Under the pieces are notes generated by a model. That model worked only from the letters and a program-made list of their open reading frames with translations. It made no database searches and was not told the origin of the DNA. This document shows, in pieces, positions 12,323-28,414 of a stretch of DNA of 64,000 bases (the first letter of the stretch is position 1; every line of letters starts with the position of its first letter). This DNA is from a virus: the IMG/VR virus record IMGVR_UViG_3300009194_000009, positions 1 to 64,000 of that record; one strand, 5' to 3'. The translations under genes were made by a program, and so were the position numbers.

Positions 12323-13447
12323 ATGGCTGTTAAAAAACAAGTAAAAGAAAAATATTTAAGAAATCGAGATTTAATGAATAACATTCATCTTTCGAAAGCA
12401 TCATACACATGGTATATAGATGGTAATTGGAAGACGACTCAGTATAGGGATTACGATATTATCGTATGTGATGAAGACATGTATGAACAGAGTAAAGAGC
12501 AATTGATGCTTCAGGGTATCAATAGAAAGCGTTTGAAAAATAACGAAAAGCGTACATCTGCGTTAAATCAAGAAGATATTGACCGTTATCTTGATAAAGA
12601 AGATTATGATAGTATTGAAAGTCGTCTGGTACTCTTTCAAGGCGTTATAGATGAACGTATATTAAGATTGGCAAAGATAGGCCATATAAATCGTAAATTA
12701 TACGAAGAAGGTAAAAAGCGTATTACTGATATGCCTGAAGAAGAAATTGAAAAAGTCAATGACGAAGATGTAGTGGTGCGAGTATTTTCTTATGAACATA
12801 TACCAGATAGTAGGGATCGTAACTCTAAAAAGACTAATAAATTCGCAGACACTAAAGAAAAGGTGAACTTCCCACCATACCGTCATTACGCAATTGTTGA
12901 TGGAGAAACCACTTGTGTAGCCATAAGTCATAATGATGGTGAAAAGTTCAATACAATGCATGGTCAAATTAACGACGCACTTGCAATAGGGTTCATGAAA
13001 TTATGTGAGAAGATTGCACAGAATTATAACTGGCGCGGGTACACTTATACGGACGATATGATAGGTAATGCATTGGCGCAACTCACAACAATGGGTCTAC
13101 AATTCAATGAGATGTTTTCAAATAACCCATTCTCTTATTACACTTCTACGGTCAATAATTCATTTACAGTTGTTTTTAATGATGAAAATGCAGTACAGAA
13201 GTATCGCGATAAGGTATTACAGGAGAATAATTATGATCCTAGTTATACCGAACAACTAAAAAACGATCTTTCGAGAACGGAATATTGGGACAAAGCCCTC
13301 GGTGTTAACAATATGAAAGCCGGTAAGGTTGAGCATATTGACTTAGATGATATAAGTGAAGATGATAAGGATAGACTTCAGAGTGTCTTCGAAGATGTTG
13401 AGGAAGAGCAAGAATATGGAAGTTCTTATGATGAGGATCATTTATAA
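12323..13447 (+). CDS. 55: Late-transcription sigma factor, gp55-like
   Basis: Directs host RNA polymerase to NATAAATA late promoters. The sigma core is split: YLRNRDLMNNIHLSKAS at the N-terminus matches the start of T4 gp55, and residues about 220-310 (LCEKIAQNYNWRGYTYTDDM, then NNPFSYYTSTVNNSFTVVF) match the gp55 region 2-like helices. Between them is an insertion of roughly 170 charged residues, making the protein 374 residues against 185 in T4. The C-terminus is strongly acidic with LQSVFEDVEEE, which could be the sliding-clamp contact as in T4 gp55. Preceded by a perfect sigma70 promoter and followed by a strong terminator. A central region (about 150-215) includes FPPYRHYAIVDGETTCVA of unknown role. 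Confidence 0.8.
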   Translation: MAVKKQVKEKYLRNRDLMNNIHLSKASYTWYIDGNWKTTQYRDYDIIVCDEDMYEQSKEQLMLQGINRKRLKNNEKRTSALNQEDIDRYLDKEDYDSIESRLVLFQGVIDERILRLAKIGHINRKLYEEGKKRITDMPEEEIEKVNDEDVVVRVFSYEHIPDSRDRNSKKTNKFADTKEKVNFPPYRHYAIVDGETTCVAISHNDGEKFNTMHGQINDALAIGFMKLCEKIAQNYNWRGYTYTDDMIGNALAQLTTMGLQFNEMFSNNPFSYYTSTVNNSFTVVFNDENAVQKYRDKVLQENNYDPSYTEQLKNDLSRTEYWDKALGVNNMKAGKVEHIDLDDISEDDKDRLQSVFEDVEEEQEYGSSYDEDHL

Positions 13448-15733: not shown

Positions 15734-18213
15734 ATGTCTTATGTAAGTGCATTTATTGACGATGATGATATGGTTGTCATCGAACGAGTAAATGGTGAAA
15801 GAACAATAAAGAAAGATAAGGTGGAGTATGTCTACTATACACTAGACCAGTATGGTGACCACAAAACCATATTTGACGAAAGCTGTACCAAACATATCTA
15901 CGACAATCGCCGGGAATTTTATGGTTCCATGAAACAGTATCCTAAAGATATTGTCTATGAGAACGATGTTAATCCAGTATTCCGGTATCTCAGTAAAAAT
16001 TACGACTTCGAAGAAACACCCGATCTTAATGTTGCATTCTACGATATCGAGGTGGCTTTCCATAAAGAAACTCGGTATTCAAATCCAGAGTTGGCCGAAA
16101 ATGAAATCATATCTGTAGCAGTATACCAAAACTGGTCAAATACTATGTTCATGATTGCCCTGCCACCACCCACTATGACAATGAAAGAATGCGAAGACAT
16201 ATGTACTAAGATTGAGTCCGAAGAATACGAGTATGACTTGAAGTGTATTATGGTTGACTCAGAAGCATCACTTTTAAAGTGTTTTCTTTTGTTGATCGAA
16301 GATAGTGATGTTATATCCGGTTGGAACTCCGAATCATACGATTTCAAATACATTTATAATCGAATTCCTAAAATCATAGGCAGGCACTACCTCAAAGAAC
16401 TATGCATAGGCGGTAAAGAACCTAATAGGAAAACAGTAAGGAACGATAAAACTAAACAGTTCGAAGAGATATACACACCAATTGGTCGTGTACACCTCGA
16501 CTATATGAATCTATATAAGAAATATACATATATAGAACAACCGACCTATAAGTTGGATCATATTGCTTATATCGAACTTGATGAACGCAAGGTCGAATAT
16601 TCTGGATCGTTAGATCAGTTATATAAAGAAGATTTTGAATTATTCGTAAGATATAACATTAAAGATACCTATCTTGTTAAGCGAATTGACGATGAGAAAG
16701 AGTTTATTGATCTGACAAACCTTCTGGCACACAACAACGGTGTACTGTTAGAGACAACGTTGGGTACCGTAGGGATCACTGAACAAGCAATCATTAACCA
16801 AGGTCACTATTATAGTGAAGATGAGCTTATATTCCCATCTAAGCCTGAGAAAGATGAAAACATTTCAGGCGCAGCAGGCGCTTTTGTTTCTCCACCCAAA
16901 ATTGGGATACGTAAGCTTGTTGCAGGTAACGATATCAACTCTCTGTATCCGTCAGTGATTCGTGCGCTTAATATGAGCCCTGAAACACTTATTGGTCATA
17001 TTAATAGTGACGAAACTGATCAAATCGTTATTGATAAAGTAGAAAGCGGTGAATGTGAATCATTTGCAGAGGCATGGCAACCATTCTTCAATACTATTGA
17101 ATTTGAAAGAGTAATGAAGGGTAGTGATGAAGAGGTAACATTTGAATTCAATAGATCCGATGAAACAGTTACTGCACCAGCCTATAAAATCAGAGATATG
17201 ATTTATAATGACGATAAGTTCACAATTAGTGCAAATGGTACTGTTTTCAGTCGAGAGAAACAGGGTGTTATTCCAGCTCTTCTAGAGCGTTGGTATTCTG
17301 AACGTAAGAAGATGCAAGCTGAGGCTGAAAAGTGGGAAAAGATTATGATTGAAACCACTGACCCTGAAGAGAAAGAGAAAGCAACAAAAGAATATAAGTT
17401 CTGGGATCAGCGTCAGATGGCTAAAAAAATTAATCTTAACGCGTAAAGTACTGCGCCTTCATATAGTAATATATGTCGAATAACTCCTTTAATTGCTGGG
17501 AACTCCTATAAGGACAATCAGCAGCCAAGCCCAAACGGGAAGGTTCAACGACTAGTCGTAAGACGTACACTCAAGTGAGTGGAAAAGGGGAGCAACCAAT
17601 ATGGTTGATGATATAGTCTGATCTTGTATGGTAACATACAGCAGTTCATAAGAGAACGGGACAGAATTAACGACTCTGTTCGAACATTAATGTGTACGGT
17701 GCATTGCTTAATAAATACTGTCGTTTTTATGACAAGCGTATTGGTCAATCAACTACATTAACTGGTCGTAGTATCACCAGACATATGAGTTCGCATATCA
17801 ATGAACAGATTTGTGGTACGTATACACATTTAGGTGATTCTATTATATATGGTGATAGTGTCGAAGGCGATACTATTATCAATACCACTATGGGTGATAT
17901 GACCATAGAGCAAGCCTTTTCTATGGGAAATAAGTTCTGGAATCAGGAATCTCACGGGAAAGAGTATAGTCACAATGATAACATGAAAGTTAAGACCTTT
18001 GATCCTGATAAGGATGAAACGTATTATGGCGATATAAACTACATATACCGCCATAAGACGAGTAAACCTAGGTGGAAGATTGTTGACAGTGACGGCAATG
18101 AGGTCATAGTGACCGGAGATCACAGTGTCATGATCGAACGTGATAACACTATTGTGAAAGTAAAACCCAGTGATATACAGGAAGGTGATGTTCTGGTATC
18201 GTTCGATGAATAA
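15734..18213 (+). CDS. 43: DNA polymerase N-terminal part with intron and split-intein N fragment
   Basis: Family B replicative polymerase, N-terminal portion. The reading frame is 15734-17444 joined to 17693-18213 (743 residues). Visible motifs: Exo I FYDIEVAF, Exo II GWNSESYDFKYIYNRI, Exo III YNIKDTYLVKRI, Pol A NDINSLYPSVI, and Pol B KKINLNALYGA, which forms only after the group I intron is removed. The chain reaches YGD of motif C at 17848-17856 and then becomes the N fragment of a split intein (118 residues). Without RNA splicing, translation stops at TAA 17444-17446, exactly at the exon edge. The remaining Asp of motif C is encoded by another gene (19135-20652), so neither part can polymerise alone. 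AGGAGG precedes the ATG. Confidence 0.92.
17445..17692 (+). ncRNA. Group I intron in DNA polymerase gene
   Basis: A 248-base intron without an open reading frame. Conserved core elements are seen in order: P (AATTGCTGGGAAC, from 17491), Q (AATCAGCAGCCAAG, from 17516), R (GGTTCAACGACTA, 17542-17554) and S (GATATAGTCTGATC, about 17609-17622). The 5' exon ends in T (17444), which can form the G-U pair of P1: exon GCGU 17441-17444 with intron GCGC 17453-17456. The intron ends in G (17692). Joining 17444 to 17693 restores GCG-TTG-TAC, giving NALYGALLNKY, the expected motif B. Most like the subgroup found in DNA polymerase genes of other large phages. Boundaries are inferred from exon continuity. 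Confidence 0.88.
17857..18210 (+). other. Split intein N-terminal fragment (pol-c site)
   Basis: 118 residues starting with Ser (SVEGDTIINTTMGDMTIE) directly after YGD. Block A is this first strand set; block B is VTGDHSVM with the T-x-x-H pair that activates the N-terminal splice bond. The fragment ends at DIQEGDVLVSFDE and a stop codon, as split inteins do. Its C-terminal partner is at 19135-19266 beyond a homing endonuclease gene. Similar in sequence to the complete second intein at 19273-19743. Confidence 0.9.
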
Positions 18214-18224
18214 TTGCACCTTGG

Positions 18225-18232
18225 TATAAATA
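18225..18232 (+). promoter_or_regulatory. Late promoter box, homing endonuclease gene
   Basis: TATAAATA, the exact T4 late consensus, 41 bases before the endonuclease start. The expected transcription start falls within the left arm of the adjoining palindrome. Confidence 0.7.
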
Positions 18233-18260
18233 GTTATGGAGACACGTGTCTCCATAACTA
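18231..18260 (+). repeat. 30-base perfect palindrome upstream of homing endonuclease
   Basis: Each arm is 15 bases with no loop (TAGTTATGGAGACAC and its reverse complement). The right arm touches the ribosome site AGGAG (18260-18264). In long transcripts from the polymerase promoter it could fold and hinder the ribosome site; a transcript begun at the late box would lose part of the left arm. Confidence 0.85.
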
Positions 18261-18272
18261 GGAGAAACATAT

Positions 18273-19145
18273 ATGCCAAAGTGTTTAGAATGCGGAGTTG
18301 AATTACCGCGATTGCAATGGACTCATTTTAAGTATAAGTGTACCGGAAGGTTCTCTAATGGACGAGAATATCAGGAGTTTTACAAGGGTGCCAAATTAGT
18401 AGATGATGATATTGCTAAAAAAACGTCTCTTACTCTTGGGAACTTTATCAAGAAATATGGGAAGGGCGTTGGTACTGAGAAGTGGAATGAGTACCGTCAG
18501 AAACAAGCATATAGTAATACGTTTGAGTATAAAAAACAAAAACACGGTTGGTCAGAAGAAGATTACAGTGAGTTTAATAAATCTAGGGCGGTGACGTTGG
18601 AAAACTTTATTAAAAAATACGGTATTGAAGAAGCAACGGAAAAGTTTGATCGGTATTGTAAGCGCCAAGCATATACCTGTTCAGAAGAGTATTTCATTGA
18701 AACGTACGGACTCGATGAAGGGCGTAGGAAATACAATAATTTTGCTAAAATTAGGGTGGGAAACGTTTTACGCCTATATTCACAGGGTATTTCAAAAATA
18801 GAAAATGAGGCATATAATGCATTGAAATGTGTGTGTCCTGCAATAGAACACCAAGTGACACTTGATGGATCTTACTTTGGACCATATGATTTTGGGTCCA
18901 TAGAAAGAAAAAAAGTCATTGAATTTTATGGTAGTTATTGGCACTGTGATGCACGGATTTATGAAGCTTCGTATCATCATAGCCAAATAGATAAGAATGC
19001 CAGAGCAATTTGGAACCATGATGCACGAAAAAGAAGCTATGCATTGAATCAAGGTTATAAAGTATATGTGATTTGGGAAATGGATTGGATGAATGACAGG
19101 GAAAATGTTATTGAAAAGGTAAAAAGGTGGTGGAGTGAAAGCTAA
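18273..19145 (+). CDS. Vsr/EDxHD-type homing endonuclease within the split intein
   Basis: A 290-residue free-standing endonuclease gene between the two halves of the split intein. The N-terminus has a zinc-finger-like CLECG...H...C pattern (Cys4, Cys7, His17, Cys22) common in phage homing enzymes. Residues about 50-165 contain three similar helix-turn units (NFIKKYG...TEKW; NFIKKYG...TEKF; FIETYG...RRKY), probably DNA-binding modules. The C-terminal domain (about 185-285) has the Vsr-like fold signature: FGPYDFGSIERKKVIEFYG, YWH, an IWNHDARKRSYALNQGY helix and VYVIWEMDW. It should cut uninterrupted polymerase genes and spread the arrangement. It ends inside the start of the next gene (11-base overlap). 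Confidence 0.85.
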   Translation: MPKCLECGVELPRLQWTHFKYKCTGRFSNGREYQEFYKGAKLVDDDIAKKTSLTLGNFIKKYGKGVGTEKWNEYRQKQAYSNTFEYKKQKHGWSEEDYSEFNKSRAVTLENFIKKYGIEEATEKFDRYCKRQAYTCSEEYFIETYGLDEGRRKYNNFAKIRVGNVLRLYSQGISKIENEAYNALKCVCPAIEHQVTLDGSYFGPYDFGSIERKKVIEFYGSYWHCDARIYEASYHHSQIDKNARAIWNHDARKRSYALNQGYKVYVIWEMDWMNDRENVIEKVKRWWSES

Positions 19146-19266
19146 AAGAACAAAAGTGGTTTCGGTAGAGCAACTTGAGGATTTTTCCGACGAGTACGTA
19201 TATGATGTTGGTATGTGTAATAGTGAGCATAATTGGTTTTTTGGTAACAACATACTTCTGAAGAAT
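19135..19266 (+). other. Split intein C-terminal fragment
   Basis: 44 residues with block F DEYVYDVGMCNSEHNWFFG and block G NNILLKN followed by Thr. The penultimate residue is Lys rather than the usual His, which is tolerated in some inteins but may need help for Asn cyclisation. The +1 residue is Thr of extein YGD-TD. Confidence 0.88.
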
Positions 19267-20652
19267 ACGGATAGTGTTCGTAAGGATACTCTAATCGAAA
19301 CCAGCATGGGAGAATTAGACATTGAATCATTATTTGAAGAATGCTCAATAAAGTGGGAAAATCATGGTAAAGAGTATGCCGCTGATGAACGATTGAAAGT
19401 ACCTTCGTATGAGAATGGTAGTGTCCTATGGAAAGTACCGGACTATATATACCGTCATCGAACAAAGAAGAACATGTTCCAAATAATTACAGCTTCAGGG
19501 AACAACGTGTTTGTCACAGAGGATCATAGCTGTATGACTGTGTGTGAGAATGGCCATATGGTAGAGAAAAAACCACATTCGTTACAGACAGGAGAAAATG
19601 TTATTATTTATCGAGATACGAAACCTGTCATGGAACAAATAGCGGATGTTGTTCACACAGGAGAGATAGATGATTATGTCTATGATATTGGTGTTGATGA
19701 AGACACCCCTTACTTTTTCGCCAATGGTATATTAGTTCATAACTCATCGTATTTCTCCGTCTATGAGGCTTATATGGCATCTGGTGATGAAGAAAAACAG
19801 TCAATGGCCAAAGCTATGTTCGATGATCGTGATCTAGCCGTGCAGATTTATGATTCTATTTCAGAAAAAACTAATGAAAGTTTCCCATCTTTCATGAATG
19901 AAAGATTTAACACTGGGATCGATAATGGAACTATAATTAAGGCAGGTCGTGAAAACCTTGCAAGTCATTCATTGTTTATTAAGAAAAAGCGTTATGCTAT
20001 GAATTTGTTTGATAAAGATGGTATTCGACTTGATAAGAACGGTAAAAGTGGTAAATTGAAGATCATGGGTCTTCAAATAAAAAGGTCAGATACCCCTAAA
20101 ATGATCCAAGATGCGTTGAAAGAAGGTATGGATATGCTTCTCAATGGTGTTCCTGAGAATGAAGTGATCACATACTTTACTGAATTCAAAGATGAACTGT
20201 CGCAAAAATCACCATGGATTTTAGGACGCCCGAGTGGTGCAAACGCGGTTAAACACTATACAGACCTGCACTATAAGTATGTGAACGGGGAAATAAGTAA
20301 AAAACCTACCATACCGGGAGCGATTGCAGGAGCAATTACATGGAATGAGCAATTGGACATTAATAATGAAGAACATATTGAAAGAATTGGTGATCAATCT
20401 AAAGTTGTTACCTGTAAACTGAGGAAAAATGATTTTGGTTATACGAATATTTCGTATTTGACTGACCAGACCCAATTTCCTGATTGGTTTAAAGAAATGC
20501 CATTTGATACAGAACTAATGTTAGAAACAATATACTATAAACCGTTACTAACAATCTTTGGTGTTCTTGGATGGGATGTGAACCTTATAAGGAAAGGTAC
20601 CAAATTTAAAGATATGTTCATCATGGATGATGACGATGAAGAATTCTTTTAA
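19135..20652 (+). CDS. 43: DNA polymerase C-terminal part with intein C fragment and second intein
   Basis: 505 residues in four parts: split intein C fragment (1-44), two extein residues Thr-Asp (45-46), a complete mini-intein (47-203), and the polymerase C-terminal extein (204-505) beginning SSYFSVYEAY. After both splicing events the chain reads YGD-TD-SSYFSV, a standard motif C. The later KKKRYAMNLFDKDG is the KKRY primer-binding motif, and the acidic end FKDMFIMDDDDEEFF may contact the sliding clamp. Total spliced polymerase is about 929 residues, close to T4 gp43 (898). The start is GTG 19135 with GGTGG/GGAG just upstream, inside the endonuclease gene, so translation of the two is coupled. 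Confidence 0.92.
   Translation: MKAKRTKVVSVEQLEDFSDEYVYDVGMCNSEHNWFFGNNILLKNTDSVRKDTLIETSMGELDIESLFEECSIKWENHGKEYAADERLKVPSYENGSVLWKVPDYIYRHRTKKNMFQIITASGNNVFVTEDHSCMTVCENGHMVEKKPHSLQTGENVIIYRDTKPVMEQIADVVHTGEIDDYVYDIGVDEDTPYFFANGILVHNSSYFSVYEAYMASGDEEKQSMAKAMFDDRDLAVQIYDSISEKTNESFPSFMNERFNTGIDNGTIIKAGRENLASHSLFIKKKRYAMNLFDKDGIRLDKNGKSGKLKIMGLQIKRSDTPKMIQDALKEGMDMLLNGVPENEVITYFTEFKDELSQKSPWILGRPSGANAVKHYTDLHYKYVNGEISKKPTIPGAIAGAITWNEQLDINNEEHIERIGDQSKVVTCKLRKNDFGYTNISYLTDQTQFPDWFKEMPFDTELMLETIYYKPLLTIFGVLGWDVNLIRKGTKFKDMFIMDDDDEEFF
19273..19743 (+). other. Complete mini-intein (YGDTD/S site)
   Basis: 157 residues from Ser (SVRKDTLIETSMGELDIE) to HN (GILVHN), followed by Ser. Block B is VTEDHSCM; blocks F and G are DDYVYDIGVDEDTPYFF and ANGILVHN. 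No endonuclease domain. It is clearly related to the split intein two residues upstream: both share the SV..DT.I.T.MG start, HGKEY, a Y-IYRH-T-K segment and a VT.DHS.M block. Confidence 0.9.
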
Positions 20653-21528: not shown

Positions 21529-22512
21529 ATGTTTGAAAATTTAAAATTACGAAAAGTGAGGAAAAAGATCGCAAACTATATCGATAAAATGGAATATAAC
21601 CGTGCTTTTCAAACTACAGTTACTGATGTAGTGCGATATAATAAGAATAAGCCGTTGATTGAACTCAATCCTCTATCCATTAATCATTTCCTCATTTCAT
21701 GCGGCATGCCTGAAGTATACGCTCATCGTTTCCAGTGTGAGTATGATCATTTAGTGGCATCTAAAGGTGATCTTTCTCATGGAGCGAAGTCTTCACAGAC
21801 CCAGAAAGAAACATACAAAGCATTTATGAAGGCTAAAAAAGATTGCAATGAAATTACTGAATACGATATGGTCCGAAACATCATTCTATATGAAAAACGG
21901 TTCGCACCTGATGATTTAAAGTACGATATTCAACTAAAGTCTAATGAATTAAATCATTTGGATGTGATAATGGATGAGGATGTAACTAAAGAAGAGCGTG
22001 ACGCTGCTGAGCTAGAGTTGCGTAAAGAAATACTTAAATTACGTTATAAAAACGAAGAAATTTCATATCTGGATTATGAAAAGTCGTTGTACACACTAGA
22101 AGATAGGAAATGGTTCAACTATCAGATTAAGCTCGATGAAGAAGATGATCGTCCTAGTTCTTTTGAACTACAAGTAGATTATAACGATCAGTTTGTAAGA
22201 TGGTTAGAAAGTAATAATATAACCCTTCAGGGCACTGAACATGAAGACGTTGACCCTAATAGTGAAGAATATGTGGAGCTACTAGTTGAGAAGTGGGCAA
22301 AATCAGCACTTATGTCCCTTGCAGCAACTATGCTAGTTGACGATGGTGGGGAGACGTTTCGCTCCGTGGTGGCTAACGAACCAGAGGGAACAGTAGTTCA
22401 GCACTTGGAAATTGATCGTGATAATCTAGAAGACTATTATGGTGATACGCTCAGTGCTGAAGAAATTAGAGATATTGCGAATAAAACTAGAAACCGCAGA
22501 ATATACAAATGA
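21529..22512 (+). CDS. Hypothetical replication-block protein
   Basis: A 327-residue, charged, largely helical protein between the clamp and the exonuclease gene. The central part has acidic helices (residues 130-230). No catalytic motif or nucleotide-binding loop seen, so it is not a clamp loader subunit. It overlaps the exonuclease gene by 4 bases (ATGA), implying coupled expression and a replication-related role by context only. Confidence 0.65.
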   Translation: MFENLKLRKVRKKIANYIDKMEYNRAFQTTVTDVVRYNKNKPLIELNPLSINHFLISCGMPEVYAHRFQCEYDHLVASKGDLSHGAKSSQTQKETYKAFMKAKKDCNEITEYDMVRNIILYEKRFAPDDLKYDIQLKSNELNHLDVIMDEDVTKEERDAAELELRKEILKLRYKNEEISYLDYEKSLYTLEDRKWFNYQIKLDEEDDRPSSFELQVDYNDQFVRWLESNNITLQGTEHEDVDPNSEEYVELLVEKWAKSALMSLAATMLVDDGGETFRSVVANEPEGTVVQHLEIDRDNLEDYYGDTLSAEEIRDIANKTRNRRIYK

Positions 22513-23504
22513 GTAAAACAAATATAATAATAGACTTCAATAATCTGTTTCATCGTATGAAACATCAAACCATAAAGGGTGCGTCTGATGACGAACGTAT
22601 TGGTATGGTGATGCATCAATTATTAGTTGGTATGCGCTCAGCATGGAATAAGTTTCATGCTGATAGATGTGTACTAGCGTTAGAAGGTAAAAGCTGGCGT
22701 AAGCATATATACCCAGACTATAAGATGAACCGTGTTGCAAAGCGTTTACAGAGAAAGCCTTCTGAAATTGAATTAGATGAAGAATTTCAAAAAGCTGCGA
22801 ATGATTTTGTTGAGTTTATCGACTTATACACGAATGTTCCAGCAATATCATCACCTAATGCAGAGGCTGATGATGTAATAGCGACATATATCTTCGATAG
22901 ACCAGATGAGAATCATATCATCGTATCATCTGATAGTGACTTCCATCAACTAATTACCGACAATGTTAAAATGTATGATGCAATGAAAGGTCATATAATC
23001 ACATCAAATGGTATTTTTGATGATAGGATGCGCCCGGTCATGGATTCAAAAACTAAAAAACAAAAAGTAATTGGTGATCCTGAATGGATACTGTTTAAAA
23101 AATGTATTCGTGGAGATTCTTCGGACAATATTTCGTCTGCTTACCCAAGACTGCGAGAAAAAAGTACTAAAAATAAAGTGGGGATGATTGATTGTTTTGA
23201 AGATCGTAAGACAAAAGGATTTGAATGGAATACAGTAATGCTTCATGAGTGGGAAGATCACAAAGGAAATAAGAATAAAGTTAAAGATGTCTATGAGATG
23301 AATAAGCTACTCATTGATCTAACAATGATACCAGACTTTATAATTGATGAAATCCGACAGTCGATTGATGAAGCAACTGTTAAGCGCATACCAAATTCTT
23401 CGATGGGATTCAAATTTGTGAAATTTTGCGCTAGGTATGATTTGATTAATATAGGGAACAACCCATCTTTATATTTAGAATTTCTTGGAAAGATATATGA
23501 ATAG
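22509..23504 (+). CDS. rnh: 5'-3' exonuclease / RNase H (FEN family)
   Basis: A 331-residue flap nuclease of the T4 RNase H type, which removes RNA primers and flaps on the lagging strand. Acidic metal-binding residues are in place: NIIIDFNNLFHR near the N-terminus, SPNAEADDVIATYI (about 118), SSDSDFHQL (about 138) and CIRGDSSDNI (about 200). T4 RNase H is 305 residues. Translation starts on the ATGA overlap with the upstream gene. It continues directly into a small coiled-coil protein. Confidence 0.88.
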   Translation: MSKTNIIIDFNNLFHRMKHQTIKGASDDERIGMVMHQLLVGMRSAWNKFHADRCVLALEGKSWRKHIYPDYKMNRVAKRLQRKPSEIELDEEFQKAANDFVEFIDLYTNVPAISSPNAEADDVIATYIFDRPDENHIIVSSDSDFHQLITDNVKMYDAMKGHIITSNGIFDDRMRPVMDSKTKKQKVIGDPEWILFKKCIRGDSSDNISSAYPRLREKSTKNKVGMIDCFEDRKTKGFEWNTVMLHEWEDHKGNKNKVKDVYEMNKLLIDLTMIPDFIIDEIRQSIDEATVKRIPNSSMGFKFVKFCARYDLINIGNNPSLYLEFLGKIYE

Positions 23505-27061: not shown

Positions 27062-28414
27062 ATGTATAATGTTGTACATAAAAAAGCAGATATGCTTCAT
27101 GCGAAAATCGGTGAAGCGACGAAAGAAGTTGATTACGATAAAGAGGTAGACGCCAAGGCGGTGCACTCGCGCCTACTTGTTACTCGTATTCGCCTGCTTC
27201 AGAAAGAGCCATTTTACGGCACCATCGCAATCAACCTGTTCTTGCAAGGTGTTGAACAGGATCACAAAGTTATCCGTACCGCTGCGGTAGACGGTAAAAA
27301 TTTCTACTATAATCCAGCATTTATTGATGCTCTGGATGATGAAGAACTCGTATTTCTTGTAGCTCACGAAGTTATGCACTGTGTTCTTCGACACCTTACA
27401 CGTCGTGGTAAGCGAGATCCAAAGATCTGGAACCATGCTGGTGATTATATCATCAACTACATTCTTGTGCGTGATAACGTAGGCACGTTCCCAAGTGTAG
27501 GTGGTCTGTATGAAGAAAGCTACGGAAACCGTACCACAGAAGACCTTTACGAAGAGCTTTATGAAAAGGCCCAGAACAGCGGTGGTGGTTCTGGTGACTC
27601 TAGCGATGGGTCTGGTGCTGGTGGTCCGGGTTCAGGCGGTAACTTCGATGATCACATTGAAGTTACCGTAGGAAATGATGGTAATGGTGGTGATGATGAT
27701 GCTGATGGTACTACTGGTAGCGTGAACATCTCTGAAGACGAAGCGTCTGAAATTGAGAATGAAATCACATCTACTATCATGCAAGCTGCTGATGTAGGTC
27801 GTAAGGCCGGTAAAGTTCCTGCTGAAATTGAACGCCTCATTGAGAACCTTCTTGAGCCAAAAATGAACTGGCGTGATATTGTACGTGAAACAGCTAAGTC
27901 ACAGGTAACTAGTGACTATACGTGGAAACGTTTGAACCGTCGTTACATGTCTCAACGCATCATGCTTCCTAGTCTTACCGTTGATGATCATTTCGATTTC
28001 GTCATTGGTATTGACGCTTCAGGCTCGATGTCCAACGACCAGTTGCGCGACTTCCTGAGTGAAATCTACGCGATTGCTGATTCATTCATGTCGTTTAAAG
28101 TGGGTATTTTCACTTTTGATACGAAGGTATATAACTATCAGGAGTTCACACAAGATACCATTGACGATCTTCTGTATTACAATCCAAAAGGTGGCGGCGG
28201 CACCGACTTCATGTGCTGCTGGGAATTCTTCAAAGAAGAAGATATTGTTCCTGAAACCTTTATCATGCTTACAGACGGCATGCCTTTTGATTCTTGGGGT
28301 GACCCTGAATATTGCGAAACTGTGTTTCTTATTCACGACAAGTACGCAATCAATAATAAGGTTAGGGCACCTTTTGGTACCACGCTGTATTATGATGACT
28401 ACGTTAACGAGTGA
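27062..28414 (+). CDS. Metallopeptidase-like / VWA domain protein
   Basis: A 450-residue protein of the DUF2201 type: an N-terminal zinc peptidase-like domain with HEVMHCVLRH (HExxH, about residue 101), a glycine/serine/aspartate-rich linker (about 170-225), a helical part with EPKMNWRDIVRE, and a C-terminal VWA domain with the metal site DASGSMS (about 320) and LTDGMPFD (about 405). Such proteins are usually paired with MoxR ATPases, here at 24.4 kb. Codon use is also CTG/CGT-rich like moxR. Substrate unknown. Own promoter and terminator. Confidence 0.85.
   Translation: MYNVVHKKADMLHAKIGEATKEVDYDKEVDAKAVHSRLLVTRIRLLQKEPFYGTIAINLFLQGVEQDHKVIRTAAVDGKNFYYNPAFIDALDDEELVFLVAHEVMHCVLRHLTRRGKRDPKIWNHAGDYIINYILVRDNVGTFPSVGGLYEESYGNRTTEDLYEELYEKAQNSGGGSGDSSDGSGAGGPGSGGNFDDHIEVTVGNDGNGGDDDADGTTGSVNISEDEASEIENEITSTIMQAADVGRKAGKVPAEIERLIENLLEPKMNWRDIVRETAKSQVTSDYTWKRLNRRYMSQRIMLPSLTVDDHFDFVIGIDASGSMSNDQLRDFLSEIYAIADSFMSFKVGIFTFDTKVYNYQEFTQDTIDDLLYYNPKGGGGTDFMCCWEFFKEEDIVPETFIMLTDGMPFDSWGDPEYCETVFLIHDKYAINNKVRAPFGTTLYYDDYVNE

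What the first reader, a model, noticed from the sequence alone, without database searches (positions are those of the whole stretch)
15734..20652. Fractured DNA polymerase gene: split intein interrupted by a homing endonuclease gene
The polymerase is encoded by two genes. The first ends in a 118-residue intein N fragment after YGD; the second begins with a 44-residue intein C fragment before TD. Between them is a free-standing Vsr/EDxHD-like endonuclease gene. This matches the 'fractured gene' arrangement described by Dassa and colleagues from marine metagenomes. Polymerase activity must depend on trans-splicing, because motif C (YGDTDS) is divided between the products.
Basis: partly seen in the sequence, partly recalled or inferred. 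Interest (0 to 1): 0.88.

Follow-up and report, generated by a model that had tools for sequence, protein, structure and literature searches.

The report
Phage polymerase with intron, two inteins
A phage's DNA-copying enzyme is encoded in scattered pieces that must apparently be joined by one RNA self-splicing step and two protein-splicing steps, two of them only two amino acids apart in the catalytic centre; split-intein phage polymerases are known, but two inteins this close together were not found elsewhere in the searches made.

Summary
The family-B DNA polymerase gene (15734-20652) carries the 118-aa intein N part after YGD, the 44-aa intein C part before TD, and a Vsr/EDxHD-type endonuclease gene between them. 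That intein starts two residues after the first intein's site: YGD^TD^SSYF. Removing all three insertions gives 929 aa that align without a gap to the 929-aa uninterrupted polymerase of a close relative (758/929 identical, low dN), so the polymerase looks maintained. The fractured split-intein polymerase with a VSR gene is already known: Aeromonas phage Aes123 is annotated that way, and papers report its intein trans-splicing. Database scans found dozens more. The two inteins flanking a two-residue extein were seen only here (0 of 101 viral and 0 of 20 cellular junction matches). Best explanation: one polymerase matured by RNA self-splicing, protein trans-splicing and protein cis-splicing, with one late-expressed homing endonuclease possibly carrying the whole block. 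Splicing itself is inferred, not shown.

The parts
15734..17444 (+). polymerase exon 1 (exonuclease domain to motif B, ...KKINLNA + first base of the next codon)
   Evidence: PF03104 and PF00136; gap-free match to L013 polymerase
17445..17692 (+). group I intron, 248 nt, no ORF recognised in it
   Evidence: Rfam RF00028 95 bits, the splice-site U of the model falls on 17444; P1 G41-C56, C42-G55, G43-C54, U44.G53 (last two digits of 174xx) and a GUAC/GUAC P10 read by eye; last base G; empty site in L013
17693..17856 (+). polymerase exon 2, motif B remainder to motif C ...IIYGD
17857..18210 (+). intein 1 N fragment, 118 aa (Ser1, TGDH, YRH), stop 18211-18213
   Evidence: TIGR01445; 9HTH match E 5e-13
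18225..18232 (+). TATAAATA, T4-type late promoter of the endonuclease gene
18231..18260 (+). 30-nt perfect palindrome just upstream of the AGGAG ribosome-binding site
18273..19145 (+). free-standing EDxHD/Vsr-type homing endonuclease, 290 aa
   Evidence: TIGR00632 vsr E 2e-4, below its cut-off; predicted fold nearest to Vsr 1cw0 and I-Bth0305I 3r3p; family alignment
19135..19266 (+). intein 1 C fragment, 44 aa, GTG start overlapping the endonuclease stop; ends ...LLKN
   Evidence: same ending in SCTP-2
19267..19272 (+). two-residue extein Thr-Asp (motif C YGD-TD-S)
19273..19743 (+). intein 2, contiguous mini-intein of 157 aa (Ser1, TEDH, YRH, ...LVHN, +1 Ser)
   Evidence: PF14890, TIGR01445, TIGR01443; 9HTH sequence match E 4e-11; model pLDDT 93, 9HTH TMq 0.88
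19744..20652 (+). polymerase C-extein (SSYFSV... to stop)
12323..13447 (+). late sigma factor gene (gp55-like), supports use of TATAAATA promoters
   Evidence: PHROG 12791 E 1e-77

Best explanation
This is one essential phage DNA polymerase in three coding segments with three self-removing inserts at its active site. (1) The group I intron in the motif B codons splices out of the mRNA, joining exon 1 and exon 2 as NA-L-YG. (2) The endonuclease gene splits intein 1, so the N product (...YGD-IntN) and the C product (IntC-TD-...) are joined by protein trans-splicing. (3) Intein 2, two residues downstream, removes itself in cis. Only then is motif C, YGDTDS, complete. The endonuclease is expressed from its own late promoter behind a hairpin, and probably cleaves intein-free polymerase genes; being so close, the intron, intein 1 and intein 2 would be co-converted as one block. 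Shown: the anatomy, the catalytic residues, the empty sites, and selection on the polymerase. Inferred: splicing in the phage, endonuclease activity, co-homing.
For: Intron: Rfam 95 bits, U.G wobble and end G. Inteins: TIGR01445 hits at both places, TIGR01443 for intein 2, sequence matches of both to 9HTH, 9HTH-like fold for intein 2. Both have Ser1, TxxH, C-terminal Asn, +1 Thr or Ser, and the Arg-His pair that PMC10189870 calls motif NX (passages). Empty sites: L013, 81.6% identical, has all three sites uninterrupted. The joined polymerase is 929 aa against 929, with no gap; dN about 0.12 and synonymous sites saturated or nearly so in exon 1, exon 2 and C-extein. SCTP-2 has intein 1 unsplit at the same site. 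No other family B or A polymerase in the 93-kb contig. Late promoter: 7 of 10 TATAAATA in the window lie 20-60 nt before an ORF start, no permuted 8-mer of 55 exceeds 3; 31 of 37 related endonuclease genes have ATAAATA within 75 nt upstream against 34 of 7071 control windows.
Against: No experiment; the contig (93,417 b) may be incomplete, so a second polymerase is not excluded. Intein 1 has Lys, not His, before the final Asn (shared with SCTP-2 and a few IMG/VR site-1 inteins). The endonuclease has Ser221 where at least 90% of the 20 aligned rows have Asp, so its activity is uncertain. PMC10643990 found co-homing of neighbouring inteins, each with an active nuclease, inefficient (passages).
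Confidence: 0.87

Rival explanations
1. The polymerase is a decaying pseudogene and replication uses another polymerase.
For: Three insertions in one gene; the contig may be incomplete.
Against: All extein parts are open and under purifying selection; the splicing residues of both inteins are intact; no other PolB or PolA in the contig; the relative's 239-kb record has PolB matches at one gene only.
Confidence: 0.04
2. The two products assemble without covalent joining, as proposed for other split phage polymerases.
For: Aeromonas phages have a separate gp43A/gp43B split with no intein at that split.
Against: Here the breaks lie inside motif C with complete intein ends on both sides; uncut inteins would sit between the catalytic residues.
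Confidence: 0.03
3. The tandem inteins are an assembly chimera of a site-1 allele and a site-2 allele.
For: The contig is metagenomic; both alleles exist separately in other phages; reads were not available.
Against: The two alleles would share only 6 to about 9 nt at the join (read), too short for normal assembly; the genes downstream follow the same order as in L013.
Confidence: 0.04
4. One reading: two genes, one split intein, nothing else.
For: The split intein and endonuclease are real.
Against: In-frame stop at 17444-17446 and a frame change across a group I intron; a second complete intein after TD.
Confidence: 0.02

Closest known systems
Aeromonas phage Aes123 gp43B1 / VSR endonuclease / gp43B2 (Aes123 PolB1 split intein)
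   Same: Split intein in motif C of a phage family B polymerase with a VSR gene between the halves; Ser1 chemistry; both window inteins match its structure 9HTH.
   Different: Single intein, at YIDTD^S, not at YGD^TD; no second intein; also split as gp43A/gp43B. The window adds a second intein and an intron.
Klebsiella phage KP13-7 polymerase
   Same: Split intein at the same YGD^TD site with a related endonuclease gene between the halves.
   Different: No second intein and motif B uninterrupted.
Salicola phage SCTP-2 polymerase
   Same: Nearest annotated polymerase; intein at the same YGD^TD site, sister of intein 1 (55% identity, support 100/97).
   Different: Intein contiguous, no endonuclease gene, no second intein, no intron.
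Aeromonas phage Aes516 gp43
   Same: Annotated with both an intron and a split intein in one polymerase.
   Different: Intron a few codons further on; one intein, at YIDTD^S; no endonuclease gene between the intein halves.
Pseudomonas phages of the PA5oct group (e.g. Deifobo)
   Same: Split intein plus endonuclease gene in motif C.
   Different: At YGDTD^S and with a different, larger endonuclease.

Membership tests
fractured gene with split intein and free-standing homing endonuclease (Dassa et al. 2009, recalled) | host gene in two ORFs, IntN ending the first and IntC starting the second | tested here: met
fractured gene with split intein and free-standing homing endonuclease (Dassa et al. 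2009, recalled) | endonuclease gene between the halves, of the EDxHD/Vsr kind | tested here: met
   the vsr profile match is below its curated cut-off
fractured gene with split intein and free-standing homing endonuclease (Dassa et al. 2009, recalled) | the halves trans-splice | not testable with these tools
   needs expression of both halves
Ser1 (cysteine-independent) class 1 inteins of phage PolB | Ser1, block B TxxH, motif NX Arg/Lys-His, C-terminal Asn, +1 Ser/Thr | tested here: met
   intein 1: S, TGDH, YRH, N, T; intein 2: S, TEDH, YRH, N, S; penultimate His present in intein 2, Lys in intein 1
Ser1 (cysteine-independent) class 1 inteins of phage PolB | HINT fold | tested here: met
   intein 2 only: model against 9HTH TMq 0.88; intein 1 by sequence match only
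group I intron | conserved catalytic core | tested here: met
   RF00028 95 bits, cut-off 50
group I intron | U.G at the 5' splice site and terminal G | tested here: met
   U17444.G17453 and G17692, read; junction agrees with L013
group I intron | self-splicing activity | not testable with these tools
   needs in vitro transcription
EDxHD homing endonuclease (I-Bth0305I) | Vsr-like catalytic fold | tested here: met
   Foldseek best hits Vsr 1cw0 (E 5.9e-3, prob 1.00) and I-Bth0305I 3r3p (E 1e-2, prob 1.00); E-values are modest
EDxHD homing endonuclease (I-Bth0305I) | catalytic residues kept | tested here: inconclusive
   D206, E217, H224 invariant in 20 rows, but Asp221 of the family is Ser here
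EDxHD homing endonuclease (I-Bth0305I) | site-specific cleavage and homing | not testable with these tools
   needs a cleavage assay and phage crosses
T4-type late-promoter and hairpin control of homing endonucleases | late promoter and hairpin next to the ribosome-binding site | tested here: met
   compared with passages of PMC2988022

The most novel reading that the evidence does not exclude
A naturally occurring two-residue extein: Thr-Asp of the catalytic motif C is translated between two inteins, so an active polymerase needs one RNA self-splicing, one protein trans-splicing and one protein cis-splicing event within 57 residues. The two intein positions, 6 bp apart, would be used interchangeably by one intein/endonuclease lineage that hops by two codons, and a single endonuclease would carry three self-splicing passengers.
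Probability: 0.6. Interest if true: 0.75.

Novelty: new variant of a known kind. Interest (0 to 1): 0.6.

Why it matters
Split-intein phage polymerases are known, but two inteins two residues apart is a much tighter spacing than those named in the passages read (48 and 85 residues; PMC8966425). It makes testable whether neighbouring related inteins splice independently or cross-splice (a cross product would lose Thr-Asp and be dead), how inteins shift between adjacent sites, and whether one endonuclease can spread several self-splicing elements together. The pair of related but divergent Ser1 inteins could also serve as a tandem-splicing tool.

Tried and rejected
Origin of the tandem: trees of 76 inteins and 60 endonucleases place intein 1 (with SCTP-2) and the endonuclease outside the main site-1 clades and nearer to site-2 members, but holding them in the main site-1 clade is not rejected (AU p 0.06 and 0.053), and intein 1 + SCTP-2 + intein 2 as one clade is not rejected either (p 0.16). 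So 'site hop' and 'duplication' both stay open. The least number of site changes forced by well-supported branches is 2 on each tree.

Counts and what they leave out: the site-1 C-junction pattern gave 101 IMG/VR stretches. All 101 continue from TDS into polymerase-like extein. In one search, 61 were not continuous in frame back to an N-junction, 9 were continuous, and 31 had no N-junction found by my expression. Of the 61, 38 have an ORF of at least 270 aa between. The site-2 pattern gave 68 stretches: 27, 5 and 36 in the same classes. Near-identical contigs are counted separately. The patterns miss inteins with other C-terminal letters. Of 20 genome-contig hits, L308 is a chance match with stops and L310 is cut after TDSL. 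A second, tandem-specific pattern found 0. All 80 best polymerase relatives were uninterrupted at YGDTDS (L018 only up to its contig end). Trees and the promoter count were made after dropping near-identical rows (76 of 108 inteins kept; 60 endonucleases kept of at least 250 aa).

SCTP-2's neighbouring 'DNA polymerase I homologue' was set aside as a second polymerase: the gene at the corresponding place in the window, 22509-23504, matches a phage exonuclease family, and no PF00476 match exists in the contig.
Full report
What is there. The polymerase gene starts at 15734. ORF 15734-17446 carries the exonuclease domain and the first part of the polymerase domain and ends ...KKINLNA-stop inside motif B. 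Rfam finds a group I intron across the stop (RF00028, 95 bits against a gathering score of 50). In that alignment the model's splice-site U falls on 17444. From the sequence the last four exon bases pair with GCGC at 17453-17456, with the U17444.G17453 wobble usual at group I 5' splice sites (recalled), and the intron ends in G17692. Joining 17444 to 17693 gives NA-L-YG, as in the uninterrupted relative L013. The intron is 248 nt, so the frame changes across it.

Exon 2 ends at YGD (17856) and is followed by 118 aa of intein N part (17857-18210), a stop, and the endonuclease gene 18273-19145. The next ORF (19135-20652) begins with 44 aa of intein C part, then Thr-Asp, then a second complete intein (19273-19743), then SSYFSV and the rest of the polymerase. 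The second intein was also missed. Two TIGR01445 matches over the cut-off lie here (17860-18135 and 19276-19539), and TIGR01443 marks the C end of intein 2. Both inteins match the Aes123 PolB1 intein 9HTH by sequence, and the predicted fold of intein 2 (mean pLDDT 93) matches it best (TMq 0.88).

Is the polymerase alive? L013, a close relative on a 239-kb IMG/VR contig, has all three sites empty. The window's exteins joined in a script give 929 aa that align without a gap to L013's 929 aa, 758 of 929 identical. dN is about 0.12 overall, with synonymous sites saturated (exon 1, C-extein) or nearly so (exon 2). No other family B or A polymerase was found in the 93-kb contig, though that contig may be incomplete. 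The 239-kb relative has PolB matches at one gene only.

Relatives with inserts. SCTP-2 has intein 1 contiguous at the same YGD^TD site, without endonuclease, intron or second intein. KP13-7 has a split intein with a related endonuclease at that site. Deifobo, Aes516 and Aes123 have split inteins at the neighbouring YGDTD^S or YIDTD^S site. Aes123 is annotated with a VSR endonuclease between the halves, and papers whose passages I read report trans-splicing of its intein, with native flanks DTD/SVY (PMC11923092, PMC13014065, PMC12707363). The fractured arrangement as such is therefore known. In IMG/VR a pattern for the YGD^TD C-junction gave 101 stretches, 61 of them not continuous in frame (38 with an ORF of 270 aa or more between), 9 contiguous and 31 unresolved; a YGDTD^S pattern gave 68 (27, 5 and 36). 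None of the 101 has a second intein at TD^S, nor did 20 cellular genome hits (two not fully informative) or a tandem-specific pattern. The window is the only case seen with both positions filled.

Chemistry. Both inteins keep Ser1, TxxH, the Arg-His pair of motif NX described for cysteine-independent inteins (PMC10189870, passages), the final Asn and a +1 Thr or Ser. Intein 1 has Lys before the final Asn, as SCTP-2 and a few IMG/VR site-1 inteins do. The extein between the inteins is Thr-Asp, the second half of motif C; its Asp is, from general knowledge of family B polymerases, a catalytic carboxylate. Motif B's split codon is residue 571, YGD ends at 625 and TD is 626-627, so all three insertions lie within 57 residues.

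The endonuclease. The profile match to Vsr is weak (E 2e-4, below cut-off), but the model's best structural matches are Vsr and the I-Bth0305I catalytic domain, and many relatives sit between PolB intein halves (73 at YGD^TD and 34 at YGDTD^S of 128 including the window, 21 unassigned, near-identical contigs included). D206, E217 and H224 are invariant in the 20-row alignment, but Asp221 of the family is Ser here, so activity is not assured. It has a TATAAATA box at 18225 and a 30-nt perfect palindrome next to its ribosome-binding site. The window encodes a late sigma factor. Seven of 10 TATAAATA in the window lie 20-60 nt before an ORF start, while no permuted 8-mer of 55 has more than 3. Of 37 related endonuclease genes, 31 have ATAAATA within 75 nt upstream, against 34 of 7071 control windows. 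This resembles the late-promoter and hairpin control of T4 endonucleases (PMC2988022, passages). A late start near 18238 (T4 spacing, recalled) would keep only the inner part of the hairpin.

How it most likely works. RNA self-splicing, trans-splicing of intein 1 and cis-splicing of intein 2 together rebuild one 929-aa polymerase. If the endonuclease is active it would cut intein-free alleles; repair from this allele would copy intron, intein 1, endonuclease and intein 2 together because they lie so close. I recognised no endonuclease of their own in intein 2 or the intron, so such co-conversion is their simplest route of spread. These steps are inferred. Against easy co-homing stands PMC10643990, where two inteins each with an active nuclease co-home poorly; here only one nuclease is present.

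Origin. The trees suggest that intein 1 and the endonuclease come from outside the main YGD^TD clades, and that the lineage changed between the two sites at least twice. The tests do not settle whether intein 2 is a duplicate of intein 1 or an independent arrival.

Literature. Ten searches of an open-access library showed me no report of two natural inteins two residues apart; the closest spacings I saw named were 48 and 85 residues (PMC8966425, passages). Subscription journals are mostly not held. Other papers read by passages: PMC4071816 and PMC7886860.

Noticed in passing
L332 4298-6595 minus (same contig, outside the window, about 84298-86595): A third intein lies in the contig, in an ORF that looks like a portal protein (by eye); the 239-kb relative also has an intein in a frame of similar length.
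   Followed up: partly
G001 (record of L013) 72719-73651 minus: Two intein N-terminal matches lie in one 482-aa frame of the relative, another gene with two inteins.
   Followed up: no
upstream of endonuclease genes in L112, L148, L095, L302 and others: In many relatives the ribosome-binding site GGAG sits in the loop of a hairpin just before the start codon, with differing stem sequences; in the window, L300, L299 and L206 a longer hairpin lies between late promoter and ribosome-binding site.
   Followed up: partly
19135-19145: The start codon of the polymerase C part overlaps the end of the late-regulated endonuclease gene, so the two could be translationally coupled; a polymerase half would then be tied to a late signal.
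   Followed up: no
27062-28414: ORF matching a PHROG family of HNH endonucleases.
   Followed up: no
Prevotella phages Lak-A1, Lak-B, Lak-C1: Lak megaphages carry relatives of the window's endonuclease; in Lak-C1 an intein-like C-junction lies just downstream.
   Followed up: no
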